Shown piece after piece: positions 9,048 to 34,939 of a stretch of DNA of 64,000 bases (position 1 is its first letter; every line of letters starts with the position of its first letter). This DNA comes from Celeribacter sp. HF31 (GTDB lineage: Bacteria; Pseudomonadota; Alphaproteobacteria; Rhodobacterales; Rhodobacteraceae). A program made the position numbers and the translations under genes. The notes under the pieces are model-generated. The model was not told where the DNA came from. It ran no database searches and saw only the letters and a program-made list of their open reading frames with translations. The stretch covers positions 434,001 through 498,000 of the forward strand of contig NZ_JAATOT010000002.1 of NCBI RefSeq assembly GCF_011806455.1, given 5' to 3'.

Positions 9048-9674
9048 ATGATCAAGACCTCCCTCTCCAGCCCCCTCTCCAGCCCGCTCGAAGATGGCCT
9101 CCACGAGCTGCCCTCCGGCAAGCTCGCCGCCATTGTCACCTACCTCGAAATGGTCTCCCGACCTGCCCCACGACCTGCGCCGGCGCAGCCGGGCTTGGAG
9201 TTGATCCGCCATGAGGCGCCCGGTCTCGAGTGGTATCGCGCGCTTTATCGACGTGTCGGCGAGGATTGGCTTTGGTTTTCACGGATGTATATGGCGGATG
9301 ACGCGCTTGCCGCAATCCTGACCGACCCGAATGTCGAGGTCTATTCCGTGCGCAAAGACGGCGCGGACCTTGGCCTATTGGAACTTGATTTCCGCGACCC
9401 CGAGAACACCGAGTTGGCGTTTTTCGGGTTGGACGAAAGCCTGATCGGCGGCGGCACCGGGCGGTGGTTGATGGAACATGCGCTGGACAAGGCGTTTGCG
9501 CGCCCGATCAAGCGGTTCTTCGTCCACACCTGTACGCTGGACAGCCCGCAGGCCGTGGGGTTCTACATCCGCTCAGGCTTTACCCCCTACGCCCGCGCCA
9601 TCGAGGTGATGGACGATCCGCGCATGAATGGCCCGCTGGCGGAGACGGCCGCACCGCAGATCCCGATGATCTAA
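9048..9674 (+). CDS. GNAT family N-acetyltransferase
   Basis: A 208-aa acetyltransferase. The C-terminal half shows the GNAT core: LGLLELDFRD beta strand, the acetyl-CoA-binding segment LIGGGTGRWLMEHALDKAF (about 135-153, a degenerate Q/RxxGxG/A loop), and VHTCTLDSPQAVGFYIRSGFTPY, the typical D-P-x-A-xxFYxxxGF motif. The substrate is unknown. ATG 9048 is chosen because upstream in-frame codons overlap the divergent gene's coding and promoter region. Its TAA stop is contributed by the end of the repeat element at 9673. Confidence 0.85.
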   Translation: MIKTSLSSPLSSPLEDGLHELPSGKLAAIVTYLEMVSRPAPRPAPAQPGLELIRHEAPGLEWYRALYRRVGEDWLWFSRMYMADDALAAILTDPNVEVYSVRKDGADLGLLELDFRDPENTELAFFGLDESLIGGGTGRWLMEHALDKAFARPIKRFFVHTCTLDSPQAVGFYIRSGFTPYARAIEVMDDPRMNGPLAETAAPQIPMI

Positions 9675-9784
9675 GCGTTTTTCGTTTAATCTGACTCAGA
9701 TTGAGCGAAAAACGTTGCCACACTGAATTGATATTGCTCCGTTTCTCAAAAATTGAGTGCCCCGAGTTTTTTAGAAACGCTTTA
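9673..9784. repeat. Miniature two-hairpin element, copy 1
   Basis: A ~112-bp element, AAGCGTTTTTCG...GAAACGCTTTA, with two internal hairpins: a left one with TTTTTCG/CGAAAAA arms and a right one with TTTCTCAAAAA arms. It is nearly identical to the copies at 14494, 23541 and 34826. One A is missing at the left end. The element end overlaps the stop codon of the acetyltransferase. Confidence 0.85.
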
Positions 9785-9787
9785 AAG

Positions 9788-9817
9788 GCAAAAGGCCCCG
9801 CAATATTGCGAGGCCTT
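9788..9817 (-). terminator. Terminator of the glycine-zipper lipoprotein gene
   Basis: AAGGCC / GGCCTT arms enclose a nested CGCAATATTGCG palindrome. On the reverse strand the stem is followed by TTTT. It lies directly beside repeat copy 1. Confidence 0.65.
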
Positions 9818-9894
9818 CGAAAACAAACACTCTGTACAAGAAACCTGAGCACTGGTCACTTTACAAACTCATGAGGCAACTTGTGCCCGGCATC

Positions 9895-10170
9895 TTACGG
9901 GCATTTCGCCGTGTAATAGGTGCCGTCGCCGTTCGAATAGGCACAGGTCGCAGCGCTCGCATCCTTGGCGACCAGAGCGCCGGCAGCAGCGCCACCCAGC
10001 GTGGCCAGAACGGTCCATTCGTCACTGGAGCCCAGCGCATCGGCGGTGATGTAGCCCAGACCAGCACCGGCAGCAGCGCCGACGCCGGTGCTCATGTCGG
10101 TGTTGCTCATCTGACAAGCGGCGAGTGCGGGCGCGGCAAAGGCCATCGCCAAAAGGATTTTCTTGGACAT
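9895..10170 (-). CDS. Small glycine-zipper lipoprotein
   Basis: A 91-aa protein with a lipoprotein signal peptide (MSKKILLAMAFAAPALAAC, lipidated Cys19). A Gly/Ala-rich stretch follows (GVGAAAGAGLGYITADALG and LGGAAAGALV) of the glycine-zipper kind found in outer-membrane lipoproteins. The role is unknown, probably envelope structure or stress. A CGGGAG ribosome-binding site precedes ATG 10170. A second protein of similar design lies at 44441. Confidence 0.75.
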   Translation of the reverse strand: MSKKILLAMAFAAPALAACQMSNTDMSTGVGAAAGAGLGYITADALGSSDEWTVLATLGGAAAGALVAKDASAATCAYSNGDGTYYTAKCP

Positions 10171-10289
10171 GGAAGTCTCCCGTTGATCTTATTTCTGTGG
10201 GGTCAACGTCGGCCTCGCCGGAATGGTTCCTGAAAAACTGTCCTAAATGTGCAAATGCGTGAGCGAAAACGAGGTAAATATCTGAAATC

Positions 10290-10730
10290 ATGACAAAAGA
10301 AATGTCCGCAGACGAGATCATCGCAAAGCTGAACCTGACGCCCCACCCCGAAGGCGGGCACTATCGGCAAACCTGGATCGCCGAGACCGAAGGCGATGCG
10401 CGGGCCACGGGAACCTGTATCTATTTCCTGCTCAAGGCGGGCGAGCGAAGCCATTGGCACCGGGTCGATGCGACCGAGATTTGGCATTACTACGCGGGCG
10501 CGCCTTTGGTTCTGTCTCTGTCGGAGACGGAAGACGGCCCGGCGCGGGATTTGATCCTTGGGCCAAATTTACAGGCCGGAGAAGCGCCCCAACTCATTGT
10601 GCCGCCGCATCATTGGCAGGCGGCCAAGACGACCGGAGACTGGACGCTGGTCGGCTGTACGGTCTCGCCGGGCTTCCGGTTTGAAGGCTTTGAACTGGCC
10701 GCTGCTGATTTTGAGATTCCGCGCAGCTGA
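10290..10730 (+). CDS. DUF985 cupin-like protein
   Basis: A 146-aa single-domain cupin of the DUF985 family. The signature HPEGGHYRQTW (17-27), the SHWHRVDATEIWHYYAGAPL core (about 54-73) and VPPHHWQAA give the beta-barrel and probable metal ligands. The family has sugar-epimerase-like structure but no firmly assigned reaction. It is cytoplasmic and monocistronic. Confidence 0.85.
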   Translation: MTKEMSADEIIAKLNLTPHPEGGHYRQTWIAETEGDARATGTCIYFLLKAGERSHWHRVDATEIWHYYAGAPLVLSLSETEDGPARDLILGPNLQAGEAPQLIVPPHHWQAAKTTGDWTLVGCTVSPGFRFEGFELAAADFEIPRS

Positions 10731-10974
10731 TTAGGGCCAAGGCGAAGATAATTTCGGGTTACGGGGAATACTGTCGCATTTTTCCCCACAGATTTGGCAA
10801 AATGGTAAGGTTTTCCAGACTGGCTTAAAACTGACGTTGGGTTAACTTGAGCGCGTTAACCAGTGTCGGGGGGGGAACCAGTGACCACACGTTTTCCCAT
10901 TGTTTTGAGTTTTGGACCCGGCGGAGTTGCACCTCGCAAGCTGCCGGGTCTTGTTCTCCTCCCATTTTAACGCT
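10731..10974. other. Intergenic region with hairpins, no gene
   Basis: I see no convincing gene here. It holds an inverted repeat GTTAAC-N8-GTTAAC (10841-10860), a run of eight G (10868-10875) and a hairpin GACCCGGC / GCCGGGTC (10915-10950) followed by a weak T-rich tail. A small RNA or an anmK terminator is possible. Confidence 0.4.
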
Positions 10975-12084
10975 TCAGGCCTTGGCCAGATCAGGGCGCG
11001 AAATGCGCCCGCCCCCGATCGCGGCTCGCACGCCAGTCGTCATCGGCGCAGAGGTCGGCATCCCGTAGATGACCCGCACTGCGAGATAGGCAAAGGCCTG
11101 CGCCTCCAGCATATCGCCATCGAGCGCCACCTCTTCGACCGGCAGCACCGGACAATCCACCCCCGCCGCAATCATCGCCATCAGCGTCGCATTGTGACGC
11201 CCGCCGCCGGTGACATAGAGCGCCGTCGGCGGCTCCGGACAATGGTCCATGGCGCGCGCGACCGAAGCCGCGGCAAAGGCGGTCAGAGTGGCAGCAGCAT
11301 CGGCGTCGGACAGCGGTAGGGCGGCCTCGAGAACGCCGTGAAAATCGTTTCGGTCCAGAGATTTCGGCGGCATTTTGTAGAAATAGGGATGCTCAAGACC
11401 CTTGGCGACGATCTCCATATCCGGCACGCCTTTTGCCGCCAATGCACCGTCCGCATCATGGGTCTCGCCCCGGCGCGCACGCATCAGATCGTTCACCGGC
11501 GCATTCGCGGGGCCAGTGTCAAACGCCAGCAAAGCGCCGGGCGCTGCCGGGTCCTCCACAGAGGGATCGACCCAAGTGAGATTGCCGACGCCGCCGAGAT
11601 TGAGAAAGGCGACCGGCGCCTCCGCCCCGATATAGCGCGCCAAAGCGTGATGGTAGAAGGGCGCCAAAGGCGCGCCCTGCCCGCCCATCTCGACATCTGC
11701 GGACCTGAAATCCCAGACCACCGGCACGCCCGTGACCTCGGCCAAAACCGCGCCGTCGCCCGCCTGATAGGTCCGGCCCTCATCGGGGGCGTGGTTCAAG
11801 GTCTGGCCATGAAAGCCGATCAACTCAAAGCCCTCAAGCCCGGACAAGGCCTCGGCATGGGCCGTCTCGATCAGCTCGGTCAGCTCATGTGACGCCTGCC
11901 AGGTGCCAAGCTCCGCGCGGAACATCTCTTGTTCCGTCTCCGAATAGCCACGAAACGTGCTTTCGCCGAAGTCGAAAATCTCGACACCATCGGTGTTCAA
12001 AAGTGCCACATCCACCCCGTCCAATGACGTGCCGGACATACATCCGGCGGCCCAGATCGGAGACTTCTTACCCTGACGGCTCAT
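10975..12084 (-). CDS. anmK: Anhydro-N-acetylmuramic acid kinase
   Basis: A 369-aa kinase that phosphorylates and opens 1,6-anhydro-MurNAc to MurNAc-6-phosphate during murein recycling. The N-terminal [15 protein letters not shown] phosphate-binding signature (14-28), [11 protein letters not shown], the [13 protein letters not shown] segment and [13 protein letters not shown] place it in the ASKHA-fold AnmK family. It is full length. The start is ATG 12084, with AAGGGAAAGAG just upstream; the frame is open beyond it but overlaps tyrS. It is divergent from tyrS with 72 bp between starts. Confidence 0.95.
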
Positions 12085-12156
12085 CACACTCTTTCCCTTT
12101 GACGCGCAGCCCGATATATCAGGCCGCGCTGACCCTTTGAACGGAAAATGTGACAG

Positions 12157-13446: not shown

Positions 13447-13477
13447 AAACGGCTCCAAATCACGAGATGATCCAAAG

Positions 13478-13500
13478 CCGCGCAGCCTCTGCGCGGTTTT
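13478..13500 (+). terminator. tyrS terminator
   Basis: The stem CCGCGCA / TGCGCGG with loop GCCTC is followed by TTTT. Confidence 0.75.
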
Positions 13501-13561
13501 GTGATATTAAAATGCACTGATCTTCATGGATTTTTTCCGTTTTCAGGCGCAGAATACACGT

Positions 13562-14440
13562 ATGAAGAGAGTCGCTTTCCTCCCCCTTGCCTTGACCGGC
13601 GCCCTGATCGGCCTCGCCAGCACGGTGCAGGCGCAGTCCTTTGACGCGAGCCAATGGATCACCGGCGACGGCTGGATCGCGCTAGGTGCCTCGACGGTTG
13701 AGGGGCAAGACGCCTGGCTGGGCGGCGACGGCACATGGACGACCGCTTGGGACGGACTGGGGCTGACATTCGGGGCTTTTGGCACCCTGGGGCGCGAGCA
13801 CGAGACCTATGCGGCGTTGAGCTATAGCCTCAGCTCCGGCGCGCGGTTCGAGATCGGCAATCCGCGTCCGGCCTACGACCAATTCGCCCGTCCGCTGATC
13901 TCTGATGTGATGCTGCCGGAGGCGCTGAGGCGCACCGGCACGGGGTTTAGCCGGCTGACCGACGGCACGATCACCGAAGGCGAATACCTGCCCTATGGTG
14001 TGAGCTATCAGGCCGCAGGTGTGGCGACCTCGCTGCATTATGTCGACGAGTATGACGCCACGGTTCTGGGGCTTGGCGGCGGCTGGCAGAGCGGCGCGTG
14101 GCAGGTCGAGGTGGCGCTGGAATATGTCGATGGCGACACCAATGATGCCAATGCGAAACTGCAAGGCCGCTATGAATTGGGCGCGGGAGAGATGTCCGGC
14201 ACGTTGTCCTACAATGAGGCCAATGACGCCCCCGCCGCGGTAGAACTGGCCTATCGCCACCAAGTGACGGATCGGCTGTCCCTGACAGAATTGGTCTCTG
14301 TCCCGTTTGAAGAGCCCGAGGACGGCGTGGCGCTTTTGGGGGCGAATATTTACCTGCGCGGATCGACCTCTTTGGACCTGTCGGGCGGCTATGGCGCGGG
14401 GGATGGATTGGCCTCTGCGGCGGTGCGCTTCGAGTTTTAA
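13562..14440 (+). CDS. Predicted outer-membrane beta-barrel protein
   Basis: A 292-aa protein with a Sec signal peptide (MKRVAFLPLALTGALIGLAS...VQAQ). The mature region has alternating polar/hydrophobic strands, many Gly, Tyr and Trp, and a terminal Phe (AAVRFEF), the usual Omp85/BAM recognition end. It is likely a small porin-like or structural barrel in the outer membrane. I do not recognise a specific family. ATG 13562 is chosen so that the signal peptide is N-terminal; an ATG at 13526 would add 12 residues in front of it. Confidence 0.7.
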   Translation: MKRVAFLPLALTGALIGLASTVQAQSFDASQWITGDGWIALGASTVEGQDAWLGGDGTWTTAWDGLGLTFGAFGTLGREHETYAALSYSLSSGARFEIGNPRPAYDQFARPLISDVMLPEALRRTGTGFSRLTDGTITEGEYLPYGVSYQAAGVATSLHYVDEYDATVLGLGGGWQSGAWQVEVALEYVDGDTNDANAKLQGRYELGAGEMSGTLSYNEANDAPAAVELAYRHQVTDRLSLTELVSVPFEEPEDGVALLGANIYLRGSTSLDLSGGYGAGDGLASAAVRFEF

Positions 14441-14460
14441 ATCCGATATGCAGACATGAA

Positions 14461-14487: not shown

Positions 14488-14493
14488 ATTCAT

Positions 14494-14607
14494 TAAAGCG
14501 TTTCTCAAAAACTTGAGGCACTCAATTTTTGAGAAACGCAGCAATATCAATTCAGTGCGGCAACGTTTTTCGCTCAATCTGAAACAGACTAAACGAAAAA
14601 CGCTTTA
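14494..14607. repeat. Miniature two-hairpin element, copy 2 (inverted)
   Basis: A 114-bp element with ends TAAAGCG and CGCTTTA, in the opposite orientation to copies 1 and 4. The hairpins TTTCTC...GAGAAA and CGTTTTTCG...CGAAAAACG are intact. It sits 7 bp beyond the stop codon of the cyclophilin gene at 14615. Confidence 0.88.
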
Positions 14608-14614
14608 TGCCATA

Positions 14615-15172
14615 TCAGTCGGTCACGGTGACGGAGGTCATCACATCCGGCTCACCGATGACGGCGCCGTTCGGGCCAGTGCCGCGTTTGATCTGATTGA
14701 CCACATCCATGCCCGACGTCACCTTGCCGACCACGGTGTATTGACCGTCGAGATGCGGCGCCGGCGCGAACATGATGAAGAACTGCGCATTGGCGGAGTT
14801 CGGGTTCTGGCTGCGGGCCATGCCGACGACGCCGGCATCAAAGGACTGGTCGGAGAACTCTGCCTTCAGATCGGGATAGGTGGAGCCTCCACGCCCGGCC
14901 ATCTGCATCGAGAAATCGGCCGCACCCATCTTGCCATATTGCACGTCGCCAGTCTGCGCCATGAAGCCATCGATCACGCGGTGGAACACGACATTGTCAT
15001 AGGCGCCCTCAGAGGCGAGTTTCGTGATCTGCGCGACGTGGCCCGGAGCGACATCGTCGAAGAGGTCGATATGGACGACACCATTGGCCTCGCCCGAGAC
15101 GGTGATGTCGAGACCGGTCGCGAAGGCCGGACCCGCCACCAAAGCGGCGATCAGGGTGAGCGACTTAAGCAT
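14615..15172 (-). CDS. Periplasmic cyclophilin-type peptidyl-prolyl isomerase
   Basis: A 185-aa cyclophilin with a Sec signal peptide (MLKSLTLIAALVAGPAFATG). The catalytic core VVFHRVIDGFMAQTGD (61-76, with Arg65, Phe69 and Gln73) and NPNSANAQFFIMF are intact. It should catalyse cis/trans proline isomerisation during periplasmic protein folding. Its ATG overlaps the last 8 bases of the upstream cytoplasmic paralogue, so the pair is co-translated. Confidence 0.93.
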   Translation of the reverse strand: MLKSLTLIAALVAGPAFATGLDITVSGEANGVVHIDLFDDVAPGHVAQITKLASEGAYDNVVFHRVIDGFMAQTGDVQYGKMGAADFSMQMAGRGGSTYPDLKAEFSDQSFDAGVVGMARSQNPNSANAQFFIMFAPAPHLDGQYTVVGKVTSGMDVVNQIKRGTGPNGAVIGEPDVMTSVTVTD

Positions 15173-15671
15173 CGGCGGCCACCTTCATGGAGATCATCGC
15201 ATCAGGATACATCGGCGGCTCGCCACGGGTGATCTTGTCGACAAATTCCATGCCGGAGATCACGCGGCCATAGACCGTGTACTGACGGTTGAGGAAGTGG
15301 TTGTCGGAGAAGTTGATGAAGAACTGCGAGTTGGCGGAGTTCGGGTTTTGCGCCCGCGCCGCCCCGATGGTGCCGCGATCATGCGGAATGCCGGAGAACT
15401 CGGCCGGAAGATCCGGCAGATCGGAACCGCCAGTGCCCGCACGACGCAGCTCGAAGTCTTTGTTCTGGTTGCCGAATTTCACGTCACCCGTCTGCGCCAT
15501 GAACCCGTCGATCACACGGTGGAAGACCACGCCGTCATAGGCGCCGGAGCGCGCCAGTTCTTTCATCCGCTCGCAATGTTTGGGCGCGATGTCGGGCAGA
15601 AGCTCTATGACCACCTCGCCGCTGTCCAGCGTGACGATGATCGTGTTTTCAGGGTCTTTGATGTCGGCCAT
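15165..15671 (-). CDS. Cytoplasmic cyclophilin-type peptidyl-prolyl isomerase
   Basis: A 168-aa cyclophilin without a signal peptide. The catalytic segment is VVFHRVIDGFMAQTGD (48-63) and the distal NPNSANSQFFINF segment is intact. It is the cytosolic partner of the exported paralogue immediately downstream, and probably a tandem duplicate. GGAG lies 6 bases before ATG 15671; the longer frame to 15791 has no ribosome-binding site and an unlikely N-terminus. It is divergent from pgk. Confidence 0.93.
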   Translation of the reverse strand: MADIKDPENTIIVTLDSGEVVIELLPDIAPKHCERMKELARSGAYDGVVFHRVIDGFMAQTGDVKFGNQNKDFELRRAGTGGSDLPDLPAEFSGIPHDRGTIGAARAQNPNSANSQFFINFSDNHFLNRQYTVYGRVISGMEFVDKITRGEPPMYPDAMISMKVAADA

Positions 15672-15873
15672 GAGTGGCTCCTCCGAATAGAAAACCGTGC
15701 ATGAGACGGTCGAAATTTTGCGCAGTTTAATCTGCGCGGGGGACAAGGGAAAGGCCGAACTCGTCGCAAGCCCGCCCATCTGTGCCCGCACGGCTCACGG
15801 CGGTTGACGAAGCGGTGATCAGGGTTCAAACAAGTGTCAGATGCCAAACCCTCCCCCGAAAGGATCGATTGCT

Positions 15874-20533: not shown

Positions 20534-22342
20534 ATGTCATCTTCGCCTCGCAAGGCCGCGCGCAGGGCCCTGCCCGCTGATGCCCGCACCAAGCTGATCC
20601 GCACGCTGGCCCTGAGTTTCGCCCTCTTGGCGGCACTTGTGGCCTCGACGCTTTTGGCCGATGCCGCCATTCAGGACGGCGTCGATGTCTGGGACGTGGT
20701 GCGCGGGGTGTTGATCTTTGTCACCACCGCCTGGCTCGCCTGGGGGGCGACGCTGTCTTTCGTCGGCCTCGCGCCGCGCGTTGGCAAACGCCGCCCTGCG
20801 CCGGAGCTGCAATCCCCTGCCCCGCGTCTCGTCGTCTTGGTGCCGATCTGCAACGAGGACCCGGTGACGACCTTTGCCCGCATCGCGGCGATGGATCGTT
20901 CGATCCAAGCCGAAGGCTTGGCCTCCGACATCGCAATCCTGTCCGACACCCGCAACGAAGACTCCGCACTTTTGGAGCGTCAGACCTATCTGCGTCTGAT
21001 CCGCGAGACACATGGCGAGGGTCGGATTTTCTATCGTCGACGCGACGACAACCGGGGCCGCAAAGCGGGCAATATCGAAGAGTTCATCCGGCGCTCCGGC
21101 GGCGCCTATGATTTCGCGCTGATCCTCGATGCCGATAGCCTGATGGAGGGCCGCGCCGTGCGCGAGATGGCCGCCAAGATGCAGGCCGACCCGAAGCTTG
21201 GCCTCTTGCAAACCCTGCCGAAAATCATCGGCGCGCGGTCGTTCTTTGGCCGCGCCATGCAATTCGCCGCAAGCTTTCACAGCCCGATCTTCACCCGTGG
21301 CCTTGAGCGTCTTCAGGGCAACACAGGCCCATTTTGGGGCCATAACGCCATGGTGCGGGTCAATGCCTTTGCCGAAAGCTGCGCCCTACCGGAACTGGCC
21401 GGTCCGCCGCCCTTCGGTGGCCATATCCTGAGCCATGACTATGTCGAGGCCGCCCTTTTGGCGCGCGGTGGCTGGCGCGTGCAAGTCGATCACACCATCA
21501 GCGGTTCCTTCGAGGAAGGCCCGGAGAACATCCTGTCCTACGCCAAACGCGACCGCCGCTGGTGTCAGGGCAACCTGCAACATTCGCGACTTCTGCTGTC
21601 TCCCGGCATCGCCGGTTGGTCGCGGTTCGTGTTCTTGCAGGGCATTTTTGCCTATCTCGTCTCCGTGCTCTGGGCCGCCTTTCTGATCACCTCCGTGGTG
21701 GCGACGATCCTGGCCCCCGTGCCGAATTATTTCCCGGAGCCACATATGCTGTTTCCGGTCTTCCCGGACGACCGGACCAAGGAAATCACCGCGCTGATCG
21801 TCGGCATCATGGGGCTTTTGATCCTGCCGAAATTCGCCATTCTCTATGAGGCCTCGGGCACGCGGCGCACCGCGCGGTTTGGCGGCTCTGTTCGTGCGGG
21901 CTTTTCCGTTGTGGCCGAGATTTTGCTGTCCTCGCTGATTGCGCCTTTGATGCTGATGTATCAGACCAAGGCGGTGCTTCAGGTGCTCTCCGGCCGCGAT
22001 GGCGGCTGGCCCGCCAACCAACGCGGCGAAGGCGCTTTGAGCTTGATGGAAGGCTTCCGCGCCGGGCTTTGGATCATGCTTACAGGCGGCGCGGCGCTGG
22101 CTTTGGTGGCCCGTGTGGCGCCCGATCTGACGCTTTGGCTCCTGCCGGTCTGCTTGCCGATGCTGGCAGCACCTTTCCTGATCGCATGGACCTCGCGTCC
22201 GCTCACACATGCCCTGTTTCTGGTGCCCGAAGAGCGCCGCCCCGCCCCGGTGATCCGCAGCTATCGCGAGATCCTTGGCCGTTGGCAGGCGGAGCCGCGC
22301 GCAGATGTGGCAAGCCCGGAGGCGACCCATGTCCCGGCATGA
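20534..22342 (+). CDS. opgH: Glucan glucosyltransferase H
   Basis: A 602-aa inner-membrane GT2 glycosyltransferase that polymerises glucose for osmoregulated periplasmic glucans from UDP-glucose. Two N-terminal TM helices precede the catalytic domain, which shows VLVPICNEDP, DADS (near 198), SHDYVEAALL and the RRWCQGN (Q/RxxRW type) motif near 341. Several C-terminal TM helices follow. It is shorter than E. coli OpgH (about 850 aa) and lacks most of that protein's cytoplasmic N- and C-terminal extensions. The ribosome-binding site GAGAGAG supports ATG 20534. The 3' end overlaps opgC. Confidence 0.95.
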   Translation: MSSSPRKAARRALPADARTKLIRTLALSFALLAALVASTLLADAAIQDGVDVWDVVRGVLIFVTTAWLAWGATLSFVGLAPRVGKRRPAPELQSPAPRLVVLVPICNEDPVTTFARIAAMDRSIQAEGLASDIAILSDTRNEDSALLERQTYLRLIRETHGEGRIFYRRRDDNRGRKAGNIEEFIRRSGGAYDFALILDADSLMEGRAVREMAAKMQADPKLGLLQTLPKIIGARSFFGRAMQFAASFHSPIFTRGLERLQGNTGPFWGHNAMVRVNAFAESCALPELAGPPPFGGHILSHDYVEAALLARGGWRVQVDHTISGSFEEGPENILSYAKRDRRWCQGNLQHSRLLLSPGIAGWSRFVFLQGIFAYLVSVLWAAFLITSVVATILAPVPNYFPEPHMLFPVFPDDRTKEITALIVGIMGLLILPKFAILYEASGTRRTARFGGSVRAGFSVVAEILLSSLIAPLMLMYQTKAVLQVLSGRDGGWPANQRGEGALSLMEGFRAGLWIMLTGGAALALVARVAPDLTLWLLPVCLPMLAAPFLIAWTSRPLTHALFLVPEERRPAPVIRSYREILGRWQAEPRADVASPEATHVPA

Positions 22343-23543
22343 CATCGCGGTGCCGAATGAGTTGGCCCAGCCGGTGAAACGCCCGCGCGATCCGCGGATC
22401 GACGCGTTTCGCGGGCTGGCGCTCTTGATGATCTTCGTCGATCATTCGCCGCACAATCCCTTTGAATATCTCACCGTGCGCAACATCGGCTTTTCCGATG
22501 CGGCGGAGGCGTTTTTCATCATGTCGGGCGTCGCCGCTGGCCTGGCCTACACCGGCCGGTTTCAAGCCCGTCACGACAAAGGCCTGTGGCAGGCCGTGGC
22601 ACCGATGTGGAAACGCTCATGGACGCTTTATCTCGTGCAAATCCTGTTGACCTCTCTGGCCATCGCGATCTTTGCCGCGGGCGCCACCTGGTTCGGTGTG
22701 GATGAGTTGCTGACCAAGATCAACCTTAGGCAAGTGTTCAACAACACCGCCGAGGCGTTGATCGGCATTCCGTTGCTGGGGCATCAGCTGGGCTATGTGA
22801 ACATCCTGCCCGCCTATTCGGTGCTGTTGTTCTGTGGCCCCTTGATGATCCTCTTGGGGCTCTGGCGGCCGATGCTGCTCTTGGGGCTCTCGGCCGCGCT
22901 CTGGCTGGCGGCGGGGATTTGGCGGATCAACCTGCCGAATTATCCCAATCCGGGCGGCTGGTTTTTCAACCCTGTCGCTTGGCAATTCATCTTTGTCGTC
23001 GGGCTTTTGACCGGGATTTTCCTGCGTCGGGGCGAGCGGTTCGTGCCGAAAACGCCGTGGCTCTTTTGGCTCGCGACCGGTTGGCTCGCTGTGGTGCTGG
23101 CCTGGCGCTATGTGCCGGGGTTCGGGCCGTTCATGAACCATCAGATGGCGGTTCTGGGCAAGGCCGGCCTGCCGTTCAACATGGTGTCGCATGACAAGAC
23201 TTTCCTCGCCCTGCCCCGCATGACCCATGCTCTGGCGCTGGCCTATGTGTTGTCCTGCCTGCCTTGGGTGACGCGTCTGACCGGGTCGAAAGCGCTGTCA
23301 TTCTTGCGGCTCTTAGGGCGTCAGGGCCTTTTGGTGTTCGCGGCAGGTACGGTGCTCGCGCTCTTCAACCATGTGATCATGGGCTATTACGCGGGGGCCG
23401 ATTGGCTCGGATGGGCGCTCATGCCCTTGGGCGCGCTGATCCTCATTGCCGTGGCCTGGATGGGCGACATTCAGAAGACCGCGCAACGTCAAACGCCTGC
23501 GCGAAAGGCAGAAGTTGCAGCGCAGCCGATGCCCGCAGAATAA
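22329..23543 (+). CDS. opgC: OpgC succinyltransferase
   Basis: A 404-aa polytopic membrane protein (about ten TM helices) of the OpgC/acyltransferase-3 type. It adds succinyl groups to periplasmic glucans, making them anionic. The N-terminal DPRIDAFRGLALLMIFVDH motif with the conserved His is typical. ATG 22329 lies inside the last codons of opgH (14-base overlap) behind GGAGGCG. Its TAA stop is formed by the first bases of repeat copy 3. This completes the glucan operon. Confidence 0.92.
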   Translation: MSRHDIAVPNELAQPVKRPRDPRIDAFRGLALLMIFVDHSPHNPFEYLTVRNIGFSDAAEAFFIMSGVAAGLAYTGRFQARHDKGLWQAVAPMWKRSWTLYLVQILLTSLAIAIFAAGATWFGVDELLTKINLRQVFNNTAEALIGIPLLGHQLGYVNILPAYSVLLFCGPLMILLGLWRPMLLLGLSAALWLAAGIWRINLPNYPNPGGWFFNPVAWQFIFVVGLLTGIFLRRGERFVPKTPWLFWLATGWLAVVLAWRYVPGFGPFMNHQMAVLGKAGLPFNMVSHDKTFLALPRMTHALALAYVLSCLPWVTRLTGSKALSFLRLLGRQGLLVFAAGTVLALFNHVIMGYYAGADWLGWALMPLGALILIAVAWMGDIQKTAQRQTPARKAEVAAQPMPAE

Positions 23544-23655
23544 AGCGTTTCTCAAAAAACTTGAGGCACGCAATTTTTGAGAAACGCAGCACTATCCATT
23601 CAGCGTGGCAACGTTTTTCGCTCAATCTGAGTCAGATCAAACGAAAAACGCATTA
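23541..23655. repeat. Miniature two-hairpin element, copy 3 (inverted)
   Basis: A 115-bp element with left end TAAAGCG and right end CGCATTA (one change from CGCTTTA). Both hairpins are preserved, and its orientation matches copy 2. The leading TAA is the opgC stop codon. Confidence 0.87.
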
Positions 23656-26740: not shown

Positions 26741-28117
26741 ATGGCAACCGAACTTTTGATGCCCGCCCTTTCTCCGACGATGGAAGAAGGCACGCTCGCG
26801 AAATGGCTCGTCAAAGAGGGCGACACCGTCTCCTCCGGCGACATCATCGCGGAAATTGAAACCGACAAGGCGACGATGGAATTCGAAGCCGTGGACGAAG
26901 GGATCGTTGGCAAGATCCTCGTGGCCGAAGGCACCGAGGGTGTGAAGGTCAACGAGGTGATCGCGGTGCTCGTGGAAGAGGGCGAGAGCGCGGACGACAT
27001 CGCGGCCCCTGCCCCCAAAGAGGACACGCCTGCTGAGGCAGACGCCACACATGACAGCGCCCCCGCCGCCGCCAAACCTGCGGCTCCGGTCGAAGTGGTC
27101 TCCAAAGCCTCCCCGGATTTCCCGGAAGGCACACCGATGAAGACCCAGACCGTGCGCGAAGCACTGCGCGACGCCATGGCCGAAGAGATGCGCCGCGACG
27201 AGACCGTCTTCCTCATGGGGGAAGAGGTCGCCGAATACCAAGGCGCTTACAAAATCTCCCAAGGCATGCTGGACGAGTTTGGTTCGAAACGCGTGATCGA
27301 CACGCCGATCACCGAGCACGGCTTTGCGGGCATTGCCACGGGGGCTGCGTTCGGCGGGCTGAAACCCATCGTCGAATTCATGACCTTCAACTTCGCGATG
27401 CAGGCCATCGACCACCTGATCAACTCCGCCGCCAAGACGCTTTACATGTCCGGCGGTCAGATGGGTGCTCCGATGGTGTTCCGGGGTCCGAACGGCGCCG
27501 CCGCCCGCGTGGGTGCGCAGCACTCCCAAGACTACGCCGCCTGGTACGCGATGATCCCCGGTCTGAAAGTGGTCATGCCCTACTCGGCTGCCGACTATAA
27601 AGGCCTGATGAAAACCGCGATCCGCGACCCGAACCCGGTGATCTTCCTCGAGAACGAGATTCTCTACGGCAAATCCTTTGAGGTGCCGGATCTCGAAGAT
27701 TTCACCATCCCCTTCGGCAAGGCGCGCGTCTGGCGCGAAGGCACGGATGTGACCATCGTCTCCTTCGGCATCGGCATGACCTATGCTTTGGAAGCCGCGG
27801 ATAAGCTCTCTGAGGAAGGCATCTCCGCCGAGGTCATCGACCTGCGGACGCTCCGCCCGATCGACTATGACACCGTGTTGGCCTCCGTGATGAAGACCAA
27901 CCGCTGTGTGACCGTCGAAGAGGGGTGGCCGGTCGGATCCATCGGCAACCACATCTCGTCTGTGATCATGCAGCGGGCGTTTGACTATCTCGACGCGCCG
28001 GTGATCAACTGTGCCGGTAAAGACGTGCCGATGCCCTACGCCGCCAACCTCGAAAAACTCGCGCTGGTGACCACCGACGACGTCGTGGCCGCCTGCAAAG
28101 AAGTCACCTACCGCTAA
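26741..28117 (+). CDS. pdhB: Pyruvate dehydrogenase E1 component, beta subunit with lipoyl domain
   Basis: A 458-aa E1 beta that carries an N-terminal lipoyl domain (1-80, lipoyl Lys43 in IETDKATME), joined by an Ala/Pro linker (about 85-125) to the transketolase-like E1 beta domain (about 130-458; [37 protein letters not shown]). The lipoyl-E1 beta fusion is typical of alphaproteobacterial complexes. The lipoyl domain is almost identical to that of pdhC downstream. Confidence 0.97.
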
Positions 28118-28129: not shown

Positions 28130-29437
28130 ATGGCTATTGAACTTTTGATGCCCGCGCTGTCTCCGACGATGGAGGAAGGGACGCTGGCGAAATGGCTCGT
28201 GAAAGAGGGGGATGAGATTTCCTCCGGCGATGTGATCGCAGAGATCGAGACCGACAAGGCGACGATGGAATTCGAAGCCGTGGACGAAGGTGTCATGGGG
28301 AAAATCCTCGTGGCGGAGGGCACCGAGGGCGTGAAAGTGAACGCGCCGATTGCGGTGCTTTTGGAAGAAGGCGAAGACGCCTCTGCCGCCGAGAACGTCG
28401 GTTCCTCTGCGCCCGCTCCGGCGGCGGAAGAAGCGCCGAAAGCCGAAGCGGCGGCTCCGGCGCCCGCAGCGGCTGCGGCCCCTGCCCCGGCAGCACCCAA
28501 AGCGGCCTCTGGCGAGCGTATCTTTGCCTCGCCGCTGGCGCGTCGCATCGCCGCTCAGAAAGGTCTCGATCTGTCTGCGATTGCGGGCTCCGGTCCGAAA
28601 GGCCGCATCGTGAAAGCAGATGTGGAAAACGCCACAGCCGCGCCGAAAGCCGAAGCGCCGAAAGCGGCCGCTCCATCCCCGGCTGCCGCCGCAGCGGCGC
28701 CTGCTGGCCCGTCTGCGGATATGGTCGCGAAGATGTACGAGGGCCGCGAGTACGAGGAAATCAAACTCGACGGCATGCGCAAAACCATCGCCGCGCGTCT
28801 CACGGAAGCCAAGCAAACCATCCCGCATTTCTACCTGCGCCGCGACATTCAGCTCGATGCGCTGATGAAATTCCGCGCCGAGCTGAACCACCAGCTCACC
28901 GGCAAGGGTGTGAAGCTGTCGGTCAATGATTTCATCATCAAGGCCGTGGCCAACGCGCTGCAAGAGGTCCCGACGGCCAATGCCGTGTGGGCCGGTGATC
29001 GCGTGTTGCAGATGAAAGCCTCTGACGTGGCCGTCGCGGTCGCGATCGAGGGCGGGCTGTTCACGCCGGTGCTGAAAGACGCCGACATGAAGTCACTCTC
29101 GGCTCTGTCGAAAGAGATGAAAGACCTCGCGCATCGTGCCCGCGACCGCAAGCTTGCGCCGCATGAGTATCAGGGCGGCTCTTTCGCGATTTCCAACCTC
29201 GGCATGTTCGGCATCGACAATTTCGACGCCATCGTGAACCCGCCACACGCCGGTATTCTGGCGGTCGGCACCGGGGTCAAGAAACCGGTGATCGGCGAGG
29301 ATGGCGAGATCAAGGTCGCAACCGTGATGTCCGTTACCATGTCTGTGGATCACCGCGTGATCGACGGCGCGCTTGGGGCAGAACTGCTCAAAGCCATTGT
29401 CGAAAATCTGGAAAATCCGGTGGCGATGCTGGCGTAA
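28130..29437 (+). CDS. pdhC: Dihydrolipoamide acetyltransferase (PDH E2)
   Basis: A 435-aa E2 core of the pyruvate dehydrogenase complex. The lipoyl domain is 1-80 (Lys43), followed by an Ala/Pro/Glu linker, the peripheral subunit-binding domain (about 125-165, [16 protein letters not shown]), a second flexible linker and the catalytic acyltransferase domain with DHRVIDG near 407. It transfers acetyl from lipoamide to CoA. A GGAG site 12 bases after the pdhB stop shows tight coupling. A terminator follows. Confidence 0.97.
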
Positions 29438-29490: not shown

Positions 29491-29506
29491 CTTAAGGGGT
29501 CATTGG

Positions 29507-29827: not shown

Positions 29828-29843
29828 ACCCGAAGAGCACGGG

Positions 29844-30662: not shown

Positions 30663-30732
30663 GCGCTTGTCCTCTTTTTTCAGAGCTTACTATAGATAGT
30701 TCCGAATTCAAAAGCGCAAGAGTGTGAACATG

Positions 30733-30764
30733 CAAAAGCCCCCGCCAGTGTTGCACAGCGGGGG
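30733..30764 (-). terminator. Terminator at the 3' side of the GTA relic
   Basis: CCCCCGC / GCGGGGG arms with a 12-base loop. On the reverse strand the stem is followed by CTTTTGC. It lies downstream of the DUF2793 tail and upstream of cysE. Confidence 0.7.
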
Positions 30765-30791
30765 ATGTGATTGGTTGTGATCGAGAGAAGG

Positions 30792-31095
30792 TTATTCGGA
30801 GGGCAGCGAGAATTGCACGCAATGGATGGCGAGGCGGATCACCCCGCCCGCGTCGAAATCACCGCCCTCGCCGGTGAGGATCAGGTCCTCGGAGGCGTAA
30901 TAGGTCAAAGGCGTGCCGGTGAGACCGCGCAGCCAGCTGCCTTGTGAGAGCGAAAGACCTGACCCGTAGCGGTTCGAAGAGGCCGCCACACCCAGCGAAA
31001 AGCCCGTGAGCCCGGTGCCGGTGATGTCGGAGAGAACGCGCCCGGTGATACCATAGACCACGGATTGACCGGGGATACCCGCCCCTGATCGTAGA
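30792..31095 (-). pseudogene. C-terminal remnant of a DUF2793 gene (GTA-linked)
   Basis: About 100 in-frame codons (GIPGQSVVYGITGRVLSDITG onward, ending HCVQFSLPSE) resemble only the C-terminal end of DUF2793 proteins, which lie at the distal end of Rhodobacterales GTA clusters. The segment NRYGSGLSLSQGSWLRGLTG and TPLTYYASEDLILTGEGGDF match the usual tail. No start codon or N-terminal domain remains. The frame is overrun by the truncated terminase gene, which reads through it out of frame. Confidence 0.7.
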
Positions 31096-32239
31096 GTGCG
31101 GCCACCGGCTCCGCCCGCGCCGCTTTGCCACGCGTGGCCCGTACCGATTTATAGGGCACCAGAGGGTCGATCTGTCGGATCACGGTTTCCACCAGATCGC
31201 CGCCCTGGTTCACCTCCGCCACGATCTTATCCGCCTCCCAAGTCTTCAGCGCGTTGATCGCCGCCTCGGCCCAGACCGTGGGCGACGAGGCCGACACCGT
31301 CGCGTCCTCCAACACATAGGCGCACCAATCTTTCGGATCGCCCTTGGTCACCGCGCCGACCACGACAATCCCGCACTCATCCGAGCCCTTGTGCCCCGTC
31401 ACCGGCGGGTCCACCGCCACGACGATGCGATCCAGCACCGGCACGTCTTGCACCCGTGCAGCCTCGATCCGCGCCAAAGACCACAGCGCGCCCTCTTCTT
31501 CGTCCAAGAGCACACCATCCAATTCCTGCCGCCCCAGACGTGTGCCCGCGTAACGCGTCTTCACCTCTTCGAGGAAGGACGCCGCCAGATTGGCTGCGTT
31601 CGCCTCGGTCGGCGCATGGGTTGTCACAGTAGAACTGCGCTCCAGAAGCGCTTTCAAAATCGCCACATTCCTCGGCGTGGTCGTCACCACCGCGCGCGGG
31701 TCATCCCCGAGCCGCAGCCCGAATTGCAGCATGTCCCAGGCCTCCTGCGGCTTGCGCCATTTCGCCAGTTCATCGACCCAGGCCGCGTCGAATTGCGGGC
31801 CGCGCAAAGCCTCCGGGTCATTGCCGGAAAACACGGTGGCCTCCGCGCCGTTGGGCCACACCAATGTCCGCCGCGTGGCCACCCATGTCGGACGCCTGTC
31901 TGGCGACGAACAGGCCAAAATGCCACTGTCGCCAAACACCATCACCTCGCGCGCCTGATCATAGGTCTCGCCGATCAAAGCCACCCGTTTCGCGCGACCC
32001 GGTTGCGTCGCCCGGCTGCCCTCGACCATCGACCGGACCCATTCAGACCCCGCCCGCGTCTTGCCCGCGCCGCGCCCGCCCATGATCACCCATGTGCGCC
32101 AGTCGCCTTCCGGCGGCAATTGATGATCCAGCGCCCAGGCCTCGAACAGGTAAGGGAGCGCCGTAAGCGCCCCCTCCCCCAATGTGTCCAGAAACTCACG
32201 CTGTGTCTCTGGTGGCTCTGAGGCGAGCCAGCCGATCAA
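30905..32239 (-). pseudogene. Truncated GTA terminase large subunit fused out of frame to DUF2793 DNA
   Basis: The first ~390 residues are a GTA-type TerL: Walker A MGGRGAGKTRAGSEWV, Walker B-like FDAAWVDELAKW, and the nuclease Asp in VVAVDPPVTG. Homology stops at AALYDQGRV, about position 31077. The final 56 codons read the DUF2793 remnant in the wrong frame (Arg/Ser/Pro-rich, meaningless). The last nuclease segment (normally ending RLDALVWALTEL-like) is missing, so it should be inactive as a packaging nuclease. The start is uncertain: TTG 32239 fits the GTA family, and an ATG at 32311 would overlap gp1 by 116 bases. Confidence 0.85.
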
Positions 32240-32522
32240 GGATCTCAGATTTGGCGGCGTCAAAGTCGATCTCTCCGCCGCCGAGCTCTCCGCTTTTGCG
32301 TTTGTGCTCATCGAGACGTTTCCTTTCGTCGAATGAGGTGTTCAGCGCCTTGTTGAGATCCGCCATGTGCTTGGCGATGTCCTTCGCCGCCTCCGGATCT
32401 CCGGCCTGCACCCCGATAATGGCCTCGTTGACGGCCCCGATCGCCCGGAGCACGCTTTGGTCGGCAATCTTCACCAGATTGTCGAGCCCGTGTTCATCCC
32501 CCACAGATGAAGTCACTTTCAT
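32196..32522 (-). CDS. GTA small terminase-like protein (gp1)
   Basis: A 108-aa helical, charged protein immediately upstream of the terminase large subunit gene. Size, position and composition match ORFg1 of the Rhodobacterales gene transfer agent, the small terminase that lacks specific DNA recognition. Its frame is intact (no stop or frameshift), but with the rest of the cluster deleted it has nothing to package. Assignment rests mainly on position. Confidence 0.6.
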   Translation of the reverse strand: MKVTSSVGDEHGLDNLVKIADQSVLRAIGAVNEAIIGVQAGDPEAAKDIAKHMADLNKALNTSFDERKRLDEHKRKSGELGGGEIDFDAAKSEILDRLARLRATRDTA

Positions 32523-32801
32523 TGTCTTCGCCTCTCATGCTTGAGTGTTCTCCGCACGAGAAACGCGAGGTTTTCGGTGCCCCTCAGCACTTTGATGACC
32601 CGTCCAGGACCCCCTCAGGTCCCTTTCGCCTCATCCCCCACGCTTTCCAGCCAGACCACCCTGCGGCAAAACCCGTAAAATTGGTTAAAGCCTGCGCACG
32701 GGCAGCGGGTTTCAGAGTGCGTTAACCTTTTGCAACCGGGGCTGAGCGCCGTTCCCTCTTGAAATCGCGGTGAATTTTGCGCATCACCAAAAGGAACAGG
32801 G

Positions 32802-33587
32802 ATGAGGAAAATCATGGCCAGCGCCCTTCACGCCAAGCTCCACGCGCTCTATGAGGGCGATAGCGATCACGCGCATGTCTTTCGCTACGCGCTTTTGGCC
32901 TTCGATCTGGTGACCGTCCTCTTCGTCATCGTCACCTCTTTCTTCGCCCACCCGCTCTGGGTCGAGATCACCGATCTGGTCTTCGGCTTTCTGATCCTTC
33001 TGGATTTTTCCGCGCGGGTCTACGTCTCGGACCGCAAGCTCCATTACCTGACCCGCCCCGCGACCATCGCCGATGTCATCGCCATGGTCTCCTTTCTGGC
33101 GCCGCTCGCGGGCGAAGGTCTCGGTTTCCTGCGCATCCTGCGCACGCTCAGGCTCTTACACACCTATCAGCTGATGAACCGGCTGCGGCAGGACTTCAAA
33201 CTCTTCCGCAAACACGAAGAGGTCATCGTCGCCGCGATCAACCTTCTGGTCTTTATTTTTGTCACCACCGGGCTGATCTACGCGTTGGAGCACGGCCACA
33301 ACGAACATATCCGCAACTACGCGGATGCGCTCTATTTCACCGTCACGACGCTGACCACCACCGGGTTTGGTGACATCACCCTGCCCGGCACCACAGGGCG
33401 ACTGGTCTCCATCGCCGTGATGTTCTTTGGTGTCACACTGTTCCTGCGCCTCGCCCAAGTGCTCTTTCGCCCCACCAAAGTGCGCTACGAATGCGAAAGC
33501 TGCGGGCTCATGCTGCATGACGCGGATGCGACCCACTGCAAACATTGCGGCGCCGTGGTGCATATCCAGACCGAAGGCCTGCTGTAG
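32802..33587 (+). CDS. Voltage-gated-type potassium channel with C-terminal zinc ribbon
   Basis: A 261-aa inner-membrane cation channel with six hydrophobic segments (about 25-210). The selectivity filter TTTGFGDI (183-190) follows the pore helix YFTVTTL, and an Arg-rich S4-like segment (FLRILRTLRLLHTYQLMNRLR, about 107-127) is visible. Beyond the last TM, the cytoplasmic tail has two CxxC pairs (YECESCGLML and HCKHCGAVVH, about 230-252), a zinc ribbon. AAAGGAACAGGG supports ATG 32802. Confidence 0.88.
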   Translation: MRKIMASALHAKLHALYEGDSDHAHVFRYALLAFDLVTVLFVIVTSFFAHPLWVEITDLVFGFLILLDFSARVYVSDRKLHYLTRPATIADVIAMVSFLAPLAGEGLGFLRILRTLRLLHTYQLMNRLRQDFKLFRKHEEVIVAAINLLVFIFVTTGLIYALEHGHNEHIRNYADALYFTVTTLTTTGFGDITLPGTTGRLVSIAVMFFGVTLFLRLAQVLFRPTKVRYECESCGLMLHDADATHCKHCGAVVHIQTEGLL

Positions 33588-33623
33588 CGCCTCCGGCGGG
33601 AGTATTTTTCCCACAAAGGAAAC

Positions 33624-34814
33624 CTATTCGACGGCTGTGCCGAACAGGGTCACCATCGCCGCGATTCCGGTCACGGCGGCGAAAAAAGCGATGTGGATGG
33701 CTGATTTGCCAGCACGGCGTGCCAGCACCACCGCGATGGCGCCCTGCACCGTGTAATAGGCGGCAAAGGCCTTGGACGCCCAAGAGATGATCTGGAACAC
33801 GTCGAGGCCCCAGGTGATCAAGAGGCCCAAAGCGACCAGCCCGGCATAGCCGATCTTCACCGGCACGCGGCCTTTGGTCAGTTCCTCGACCAGCCCGCCC
33901 GCACCGGAAGTGTCCGCCACAGCCGCCGAGAATTGCGCAGCCAGGGCCGCGAGCACCAGCATCATCGGCAACACGGGTGCGACGATACGCATCATGTCGA
34001 TGATCGCCGTTTCAGAGGTCAAGATCTGTTCCGGGCGAAACACATAGGCCATGAGCAGCACGTAGGTCATGTAGATCGCCGTCGAGACCCATTGCGCGAT
34101 GCGCATCGAGCGGATGCGGGTCTTGGCGTCATATTCCTCGCCCAGATAGCGCGAAGTCTCGAACCCTTGTACCGTGACCAGGAGCCCGAACAACAGGCTC
34201 AGCGCAGGCCATCCCGTCAGGCTCGCGGGTGTGACGATCAACGTATTGCCGCTGGATTTCTCCGCGAAAAACCACGCCAAGCCGACCAAAAGCCCGGCAA
34301 TGATCGACAGTTTCAGCCCGACAGACACCTGCTCCAAACGCTCCAGCGCCGAAAACCCTTTGGTCCAGCCGGTGATCAGGATCACACCAAACACCGCAGT
34401 CGTCACCAGACGTGCGGCGAATGCCGTGTCCCATGGCGTCAGACTGACGGCAAAGGCGCCCAAAAGGTTGAGGTAATAGGCCACCGAAATCACATAGGCG
34501 AAGGACAAGACCCAAGAGGCCAGATGTTCGAGCCGACCGCTCAGCGCGTCATGTCCGCGCCCTTCCATAGCCGCGATATTGAACCGCACCGCAGCGCCGA
34601 TTGCATAGGCCACGAGACACAAAAGCGCCATTGCCAGCGGCGTCCAGGCGCCATAAGCCTCCGCCAGAATAGGCCCCAGCACCAGAAACCCCGACCCGAT
34701 GATCGAGGCCAAGGGCGTCATTGTCGCTTTCCAAAGAGGCGCACCCGCCAGCCGTGGCCAGCTCAACACCCCCGCCATCAAAAGCGTCATGGCAATAATG
34801 GCAATGGTGTCCAT
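33624..34814 (-). CDS. APC-superfamily permease
   Basis: A 396-aa polytopic protein with about 11 TM helices. The SIIGSGFLVLGPILAEAYG segment in helix 1 resembles the unwound GSG of LeuT-fold amino-acid/cation permeases. There are no soluble domains. The substrate is unknown. The ribosome-binding site AAGGACGAG begins within the end of repeat copy 4 (CGCTTTAAGGA), 12 bases before ATG 34814. It is convergent with the potassium channel gene. Confidence 0.75.
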   Translation of the reverse strand: MDTIAIIAMTLLMAGVLSWPRLAGAPLWKATMTPLASIIGSGFLVLGPILAEAYGAWTPLAMALLCLVAYAIGAAVRFNIAAMEGRGHDALSGRLEHLASWVLSFAYVISVAYYLNLLGAFAVSLTPWDTAFAARLVTTAVFGVILITGWTKGFSALERLEQVSVGLKLSIIAGLLVGLAWFFAEKSSGNTLIVTPASLTGWPALSLLFGLLVTVQGFETSRYLGEEYDAKTRIRSMRIAQWVSTAIYMTYVLLMAYVFRPEQILTSETAIIDMMRIVAPVLPMMLVLAALAAQFSAAVADTSGAGGLVEELTKGRVPVKIGYAGLVALGLLITWGLDVFQIISWASKAFAAYYTVQGAIAVVLARRAGKSAIHIAFFAAVTGIAAMVTLFGTAVE

Positions 34815-34825
34815 CGTCTCGTCCT

Positions 34826-34939
34826 TAAAGCGTTTTTCGTTTAATCTGAATCAGTTTGAGCGAAAAACGTTGCCACACTGAATTGATATTGCTCCGCTTC
34901 TCAAAAATTGAGTACCTCAAGTTTTTGAGAAACGCTTTA
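34826..34939. repeat. Miniature two-hairpin element, copy 4
   Basis: A 114-bp element TAAAGCG...CGCTTTA in the orientation of copy 1, with both hairpins perfect or nearly so. It lies between the mltG terminator and the permease start, only 11 bases from the start codon, so permease transcripts either begin inside it or carry it as a leader. Confidence 0.88.

What the first reader, a model, noticed from the sequence alone, without database searches (positions are those of the whole stretch)
9673..34939. Family of ~114-bp two-hairpin elements with TA-type ends (copies at 9673, 14494, 23541, 34826)
Four intergenic copies, two in each orientation, align along their whole length with few differences, most of which keep the hairpins paired. 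Ends are TAAAGCGTTT and AAACGCTTTA, an imperfect terminal inverted repeat bounded by TA. Inside are two hairpins separated by a constant linker containing TTGCC...CTGAAT. There is no coding capacity. The TA borders and terminal repeat suggest a non-autonomous miniature element moved by an IS630/Tc1-type transposase, comparable in kind to Correia elements. Four copies in 26 kb implies a high genomic copy number.
Basis: partly seen in the sequence, partly recalled or inferred. Interest (0 to 1): 0.8.

Follow-up and report, generated by a model that had tools for sequence, protein, structure and literature searches.

The report
IS630-derived two-hairpin mobile DNA repeats
These short repeats in a bacterium of the genus Celeribacter look like gene-less jumping DNA whose two ends match those of a known family of jumping genes (IS630), which would explain how a puzzling class of repeats, marked by a cell-cycle methylation site, spreads through bacterial genomes.

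Summary
The four copies (9672-9784, 14494-14607, 23541-23655, 34826-34939) are real, and a fifth, diverged relative lies at 44816-44931. The host belongs to Celeribacter and has about 30 full copies. The IS630-MITE reading is supported: TA at both ends, Y-TA-R targets, six clean empty-site junctions in sister species, 15 identical copies over two species. A profile of IS630 ends from outside the genus recognises 32 of 40 ends of the repeats. No DDE_3 (IS630) transposase was found in the host; two congeners have it.

The anatomy is that of the Caulobacter/Brucella CIR repeats (two arms, linker, CcrM site GANTC at one loop), whose mobility was left open. New here: GANTC sits at exactly positions 23-27 of the transposase-side end in 28 of 29 alphaproteobacterial IS630 and at the same offset in 51 of 68 distinct type A repeats, so the CcrM motif is best read as inherited from the IS630 end. 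Also, 50 of 94 elements supply the stop codon of a neighbouring gene, against 99 of 659 control sites. Methylation control of movement is inferred, not shown.

The parts
9672..9784 (+). type A element, copy e1 (hairpin 1 first); its first bases TAA end the ORF 8865-9674
   Evidence: the place is not a clean empty site in G007 and G001
14494..14607 (-). type A element, copy e2, between ORFs 13526-14440 (+) and 14615-15172 (-)
   Evidence: absent at the orthologous place in G001 and G017 but with an imprecise junction
23541..23655 (-). type A element, copy e3; single-TA empty site in G001 and G017
23541..23543 (+). terminal TAA of e3 = stop codon of ORF 22275-23543; the empty sites also read TAA at this place
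34826..34939 (+). type A element, copy e4; also present at the orthologous site in G007, empty with a single TA in G017
34829..34871 (+). hairpin 1 of e4: one IS630-like end followed by its near-complement
34848..34852 (+). GAATC (GANTC, CcrM recognition sequence) at offset 23-27 of the element end, at the apex of hairpin 1
   Evidence: same offset in IS630 left ends
34872..34894 (+). linker between the hairpins (TTGCC...CTGAAT)
34895..34934 (+). hairpin 2 of e4

Best explanation
The repeats are miniature non-autonomous elements (MITEs) of the alphaproteobacterial IS630 group (ISRm2011-2-like). Each consists of the two ~28-bp IS630 ends, every end continued by a near-complement of itself so that it folds into a hairpin, joined by a ~23-nt linker. 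An IS630 transposase acting in trans binds both ends, cuts next to TA and inserts the element into a Y-TA-R target, which ends up flanking it as TA on both sides. Because YTAR contains the stop codons TAA and TAG, and the element begins with TAA on either strand, insertion into a gene's own stop codon leaves the protein unchanged; about half of the copies sit there. One end, the counterpart of the transposase-side end of IS630, keeps the CcrM methylation sequence GANTC at positions 23-27 in most type A copies, now exposed at the hairpin apex. Shown: anatomy, TA ends, target, empty sites, end similarity, fixed GANTC offset in IS630, stop-codon placement, identical copies. Inferred: movement by IS630 transposase in trans; CcrM methylation as a brake that couples movement to replication, as Dam does for Tn10 and Tn5.
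For: Empty sites with one dinucleotide: e4 in G017, e3 in G001 and G017 (single TA); two G007 copies against G001 (CA, TT) and one G001 copy against G007 (TC), exact length (6 of 26 printed alignments). Target: C/T before the left TA in 61 of 67, A/G after the right TA in 62 of 67 (13 of 80 copies without TA at both called ends set aside); autonomous IS630: C/T in 38 of 38 and A/G in 36 of 38 loci, loci holding the same copy not removed. 15 identical copies, 4 in G000 and 11 in G007, while six of seven flank alignments between these genomes are 92-95% identical and one 87%. IS630 in G008 (1057 bp) and G004 with TAAAGCGTTTCGG ends bounded by TA. Positions 8-28 of 32 of 40 ends (20 elements) reach p <= 1e-3 among 11,629 TA-starting 28-mers with the better of two profiles from 26 IS630 outside Celeribacter. 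GANTC at 23-27 of the transposase-side end in 28 of 29 distinct IS630, 0 of 29 at the other end; same offset in 51 of 68 distinct type A sequences and 6 of 18 other elements. Stop codons: 50 of 94 against 99 of 659; IS630 itself 10 of 14 coding frames.
Against: No DDE_3 match in G000, G007 or G001, the genomes with most copies; with another IS630 family model G000 has one weak match (E 9.4e-5). e1 and e2 do not give clean empty sites. An apparent single-TA empty site in G000 (against L126) continues with TAAAGCGTTT and may be a deletion footprint. GANTC is not better conserved than the rest of type A (columns 0.99, 0.90, 0.84, 0.94, 0.94 against a mean of 0.957), is absent from e2 and e5 and from 12 of 18 elements of other types, so selection on it in the MITE is unproven. 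Eight of 40 ends miss the profile cut: both ends of L190 and one end each of L186, L195, L219, L223, L237 and e5. In type A the GANTC end scores higher with the right than with the left IS630 profile (36.7 against 32.4).
Confidence: 0.84

Rival explanations
1. REPIN-like elements: two inverted palindromes moved by a RAYT (Y1 tyrosine) transposase.
For: Two hairpins in inverted arrangement, intergenic, many copies.
Against: No Y1_Tnp match in G000, G007 or G001 and matches in only 3 of 20 congeners; TA at both ends with single-dinucleotide empty sites, and IS630-like ends.
Confidence: 0.03
2. MITEs moved by a different TA-duplicating transposase, for example an IS of the kind of Brucella IS711, which also uses YTAR.
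For: IS711 is reported to duplicate TA at YTAR (passages); no DDE_3 transposase found in the host genome.
Against: 28-bp end similarity to IS630 with an independent profile; autonomous IS630 with the same ends and target in the same genus. Ends of IS711-like elements were not examined here.
Confidence: 0.1
3. A host-functional structured RNA (terminator, mRNA stabiliser or RNase III site) kept at 3' ends of genes rather than a selfish element.
For: Stems keep pairing while changing sequence between types: in an alignment of 9 sequences 91.0% of 278 cells pair and the covariation score 0.241 is reached in 0 of 500 shuffles, a number that the tool says is not a probability. The hairpin-1-first strand folds better in 66 of 68 distinct type A copies, which descend from few ancestors. 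35 of 79 flanking gene pairs are convergent against 12 of 51 pairs in the window, by a crude gene caller.
Against: Patchy presence and empty sites; no orientation bias relative to the gene read into the element: 27 left and 25 right ends at stop codons, 22 and 20 for type A alone. The two roles can coexist.
Confidence: 0.15
4. The paired arms are kept because each end carries two inverted transposase-binding sites that change together when transposase specificity drifts; no RNA role is needed.
For: The inner arm of each hairpin is a near-complement of the IS630-like end; some related eukaryotic transposons carry two binding sites per end (recalled, from no call).
Against: The strand difference in fold stability is not predicted; pairing extends towards the hairpin apex.
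Confidence: 0.35

Closest known systems
CIR (Caulobacter CcrM-associated intergenic repeats, Chen and Shapiro 2003; known here from passages of the reviews PMC2229807, and PMC10969869)
   Same: About 110 bp, two long inverted repeats forming two arms joined by a linker, GANTC at the terminal loop of one arm, TA at the termini, intergenic, alphaproteobacterial.
   Different: For CIR the review lists no terminal repeat, an unknown target duplication and an open mechanism of mobility; here terminal repeats, TA targets, empty sites and matching IS630 ends are shown. Sequence identity with CIR1-4 was not tested (the original paper is not held).
RUP of Streptococcus pneumoniae with IS630-Spn1 (passages)
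   Same: 107-bp non-autonomous element, TA targets, ends like those of an IS630 element, many intergenic copies.
   Different: No arm-linker-arm fold or GANTC is described for RUP in the passages seen; other phylum.
ISRm2011-2 / ISRel6 group of IS630 (named plasmid copies)
   Same: TA-bounded ~28-bp ends with GANTC at offset 23-27 on the transposase side; 1057 and 1051 bp.
   Different: Autonomous; end hairpins of the MITE kind were not looked for.
Correia/NEMIS and ERIC elements (table in PMC2229807)
   Same: TA at the termini, small, stable folds.
   Different: According to the review they fold by pairing of the 5' with the 3' end, whereas here each end folds on itself.
RIME1 (Rhizobium) and Bru-RS1 (Brucella)
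   Same: Size and large palindromes (recalled, from no call); association of Bru-RS1 with IS711 seen in passages.
   Different: Sequences not compared here.

Membership tests
MITE of the IS630 family | no coding capacity, 100-200 bp, multicopy | tested here: met
   about 110-117 bp, about 30 full copies in G000; 39 forward and 39 reverse end matches in G007
MITE of the IS630 family | TA target with duplication | tested here: met
   3 single-TA junctions and 3 exact-length junctions with a mutated dinucleotide among 26 alignments; e1 and e2 not clean
MITE of the IS630 family | terminal repeats match an autonomous IS630 | tested here: met
   32 of 40 ends at p <= 1e-3; not met by L190 (both ends) and by one end each of L186, L195, L219, L223, L237 and e5
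MITE of the IS630 family | cognate transposase in the same genome | tested here: not met
   no DDE_3 match in G000, G007, G001; present in congeners G004 and G008. Not a defining feature, since movement in trans can precede loss
MITE of the IS630 family | mobilisation by the transposase shown | not testable with these tools
   needs a transposition assay
CIR repeats | two arms plus linker, about 110 bp | tested here: met
CIR repeats | GANTC at the terminal loop of one arm | tested here: met
   51 of 68 distinct type A at offset 23-27; only 6 of 18 elements of other types, e5 not among them
CIR repeats | intergenic only | tested here: inconclusive
   7 of 82 type A copies flagged by a crude ORF test as possible gene interruptions; not followed up
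CIR repeats | sequence homology to published CIR1-4 | not testable with these tools
   original paper not held
REPIN | RAYT (Y1) transposase in the genome | tested here: not met
   no Y1_Tnp match in G000, G007, G001; 3 of 20 congeners have one

The most novel reading that the evidence does not exclude
Alphaproteobacterial IS630 elements and their CIR-type MITEs are gated by the cell-cycle methylase CcrM: the GANTC at positions 23-27 of the transposase-side end is fully methylated for most of the cycle, and only the hemimethylated copies left behind the replication fork can be expressed or bound. This would be the alphaproteobacterial counterpart, evolved separately, of Dam control of Tn10 and Tn5. 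It would also explain the CIR 'CcrM motif' that has had no assigned role.
Probability: 0.4. Interest if true: 0.85.

Novelty: new member of a known kind. Interest (0 to 1): 0.64.

Why it matters
The CIR repeats of Caulobacter and Brucella were named after a CcrM site without a known role, and the review seen here (passages) says more information is needed on how they move. The Celeribacter families offer both a mover (IS630) and an origin for the motif (the IS630 end), and turn 'does CcrM time transposition?' into a direct experiment. Landing in a stop codon while restoring it would also explain how such elements spread in compact genomes with little harm.

Tried and rejected
RAYT/REPIN: Y1_Tnp searched in 20 congeners, 3 with matches, none in the three copy-rich genomes. 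Rfam: no family. Plasmid and phage collections for type A: no match; e5 in plasmids: no match. Pattern TAAAGCGTTTCV shows no pair of ends at IS length in G000 or G007 but uncovered the parallel MITE types. The covariance model found nothing in 21 named loci of other alphaproteobacteria and other bacteria. A class-wide search with it (1 of 385 genomes, the host) is uninformative as a negative, because only 9 candidates per genome were scored; the family-wide BLAST search (4 of 394, host included) scored only 2 per genome. GANTC as a selected site inside type A: not supported. Control for GANTC outside Alphaproteobacteria: 39 non-alpha loci, 28 with a called end pair, 1 of 28 with GANTC at 23 (L336); none of the 28 has a TA[AG]AGC head, so lineage and host are confounded. 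In one search none of 5 named non-alpha copies has GANTC at 23, among them Deinococcus QL22 with a TAGAGC head. In one search, 88 loci were given, 81 had a tblastn hit, 39 passed the end filter (29 distinct, 10 duplicates) and 42 were dropped for other heads, poor repeats or missing ends; 10 of the dropped rows also show GANTC at 23 of the called left end, one of them (L261) with a miscalled end. The filter demands TA[AG]AGC, so invariance of that head is by construction. The gene-context script is crude (a spurious ORF overlaps e2).
Full report
Observation. The four repeats are real and align over their full length. Exact spans are 9672-9784 (+), 14494-14607 (-), 23541-23655 (-) and 34826-34939 (+). 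Each has two hairpins and no Rfam match. The genus is Celeribacter by inference: a protein beside e2 finds C. naphthalenivorans EaN35-2 at 86% identity on a contig of 586,654 bases, the same length as contig C2 of congener G001.

Distribution. Of 41 genomes searched, 8 of 20 congeners (host included) have a match and 0 of 21 others; two of these 8 (G005, G015) have a single weak match. G007 gives 39 forward and 39 reverse matches of the end pattern. In 394 genomes of the family, with only 2 candidates scored in each, 3 genomes outside the genus have weak, partial matches; two of these lead to elements of the same architecture with other stems (L216/L219 in G312 and L218/L220 in G415). A named example is on a Roseovarius sp. 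Pro17 plasmid, NZ_CP141180.1:8306-8420.

A superfamily held together by structure. Searching for the end TAAAGCGTTTC uncovered other families in the same genomes. They share ends, arm length and linker position, but the stems differ and remain paired: counted outward from the stem base on 17 elements (L186 and L190 left out), 252 of 272 and 228 of 238 cells pair (each structure came from its own sequence, which favours pairing). In a 9-sequence alignment without any type A member, 91.0% of 278 cells pair, the covariation score is 0.241 against a shuffled mean of 0.082 (0 of 500 reach it), and sliding the partners by one to three columns lowers pairing to 46% or less. A covariance model from that alignment finds all four type A copies of the window (E 2.2e-12 to 3.4e-8 in 1.16 Mb) and a fifth element at 44816-44931; it finds nothing in 21 named loci.

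Mobility. Type A copies have C or T before the left TA in 61 of 67 and A or G after the right TA in 62 of 67 (13 of 80 set aside). Copy e4 is shared by G000 and G007 and absent from G017, where a single TA remains; e3 is absent from G001 and G017, again with a single TA; three further junctions between G007 and G001 have the exact length with one mutated dinucleotide. These are 6 of 26 flank alignments printed; one more (L126 against G000) has the exact length but may be a deletion footprint, and the other 19 are imprecise, more diverged or unrelated. e2 is absent elsewhere but the junctions are untidy, and at e1 the relatives carry other bases. Fifteen copies are identical letter for letter, 4 in G000 and 11 in G007, while six of seven flank alignments between these genomes are 92-95% identical and one 87%; this points to recent movement, perhaps with transfer between species. 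In this subfamily the first 13 bases of the two ends are perfect inverted repeats. A 51-bp single-hairpin remnant occupies the site of one G000 copy in G001.

The mover. No DDE_3 match exists in G000, G007 or G001, but G008 has ten and G004 three, fragments included. G008 copies of 1057 bp start TAAAGCGTTTCGG on both sides, and a G004 copy nearly so, bounded by TA; the transposase is an IS630-family protein. Named and unnamed alphaproteobacterial IS630 elements (ISRm2011-2, ISRel6, Roseovarius, Paracoccus, Azospirillum and others) have ~28-bp ends of the same layout. With profiles from 26 of them outside Celeribacter, positions 8-28 of 32 of 40 ends of the repeats reach p <= 1e-3 among 11,629 TA-starting 28-mers, taking the better of the left and right profile; the background still contains some of the elements, which makes it conservative. 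The misses are both ends of L190 and one end each of L186, L195, L219, L223, L237 and e5. In the 6 non-type-A elements with GANTC at 23-27, that end scores higher with the left and the other end with the right profile, GANTC itself contributing; in type A the GANTC end scores higher with the right profile.

The CcrM site. In 29 distinct IS630 with confidently called ends (39 of 81 rows passed, 10 of them duplicates), GANTC lies at positions 23-27 of the transposase-side end in 28 and at that place of the other end in none. The free base is A 22, G 2, T 2, C 2 times; the other four positions are 28-29 of 29, while positions 7-22 have 11-20 of 29 for their commonest base. The same offset carries GANTC in 51 of 68 distinct type A sequences, never in their other end, and in 6 of the 18 other elements listed. 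The apex GANTC of these CIR-like repeats is therefore best read as part of the IS630 end. That CcrM methylates it and that this matters for movement is inference: by analogy with Dam control of Tn10 and Tn5 (summarised in PMC5390034, passages) and with an essential CcrM reported in Paracoccus aminophilus, of the same order (PMC3925955, passages). Against it, the site is not better conserved than the rest of type A, and outside Alphaproteobacteria the control is confounded by different end types. CcrM itself was not searched for in G000.

Stop codons. Of 97 elements, 94 had enough flank; in 50 the terminal TAA is in frame with a coding frame that runs into it, against 99 of 659 YTAR control sites outside genes (948 sites, 289 inside genes set aside; odds ratio 6.4, Fisher p 5e-15; copies at orthologous sites are not independent, and genes were judged by codon usage). 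Two elements do so on both sides; 6 have a frame in another phase only and 38 none. Over 185 ends, frames run in with phase 0, 1 and 2 in 52, 8 and 3 cases, and the two ends are used equally, 27 and 25. Autonomous IS630 show the same trend, 10 of 14 frames in phase 0 in 33 copies. In the window, e3 and e5 lie so; the empty relatives of e3 read TAA there.

Known or new. The anatomy is that of the CIR repeats, known here from passages of reviews; the original paper is not held. For CIR the review lists no terminal repeat, an unknown duplication and an open mechanism. Ten literature searches were made, among them CcrM or GANTC with IS630 or transposases, CcrM with transposition, MITEs with stop codons, Celeribacter with MITEs, and alphaproteobacterial IS630 MITEs. 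None of the listed titles and abstract beginnings, and none of the passages I saw in six papers, describes the link of GANTC to IS630 ends or the stop-codon landing. The library holds open-licence papers only.

Noticed in passing
window 44816-44931: A fifth element of the same architecture with diverged stems and GAGAC instead of GANTC; both ends form stop codons.
   Followed up: partly
L190 (G017), L186 (G004): Odd relatives: a 111-bp element with the same ends but another interior, and a 68-bp form.
   Followed up: no
L153:16225-16275 (G001): Solo 51-bp hairpin at the orthologous site of a full G000 copy (L003), explicable by deletion between GCGTTT direct repeats.
   Followed up: partly
L231 (G000:C9, about 331081) against L126 (G007): The site lacking the element in G000 reads TAAAGCGTTTCC from the single TA on; it may be a deletion footprint rather than a virgin site.
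   Followed up: no
L202 (G007:C1:492900-494600): About 1.26 kb of other sequence lies at the orthologous place of e2 in G007.
   Followed up: no
window 14615-15172 and 15165-15791 (-): Two adjacent related ORFs, by my reading cyclophilin-type peptidyl-prolyl isomerases (repeats D5, D6).
   Followed up: no
window 26741-26985 and 28130-28374: 83% identical repeat at the starts of two neighbouring ORFs, by my reading lipoyl domains of pyruvate dehydrogenase subunits.
   Followed up: no
L336 (non-alpha) and L334 (alpha): A second IS630 end type (TAGTGCA...) that also has GATTC at position 23, once outside the Alphaproteobacteria.
   Followed up: no
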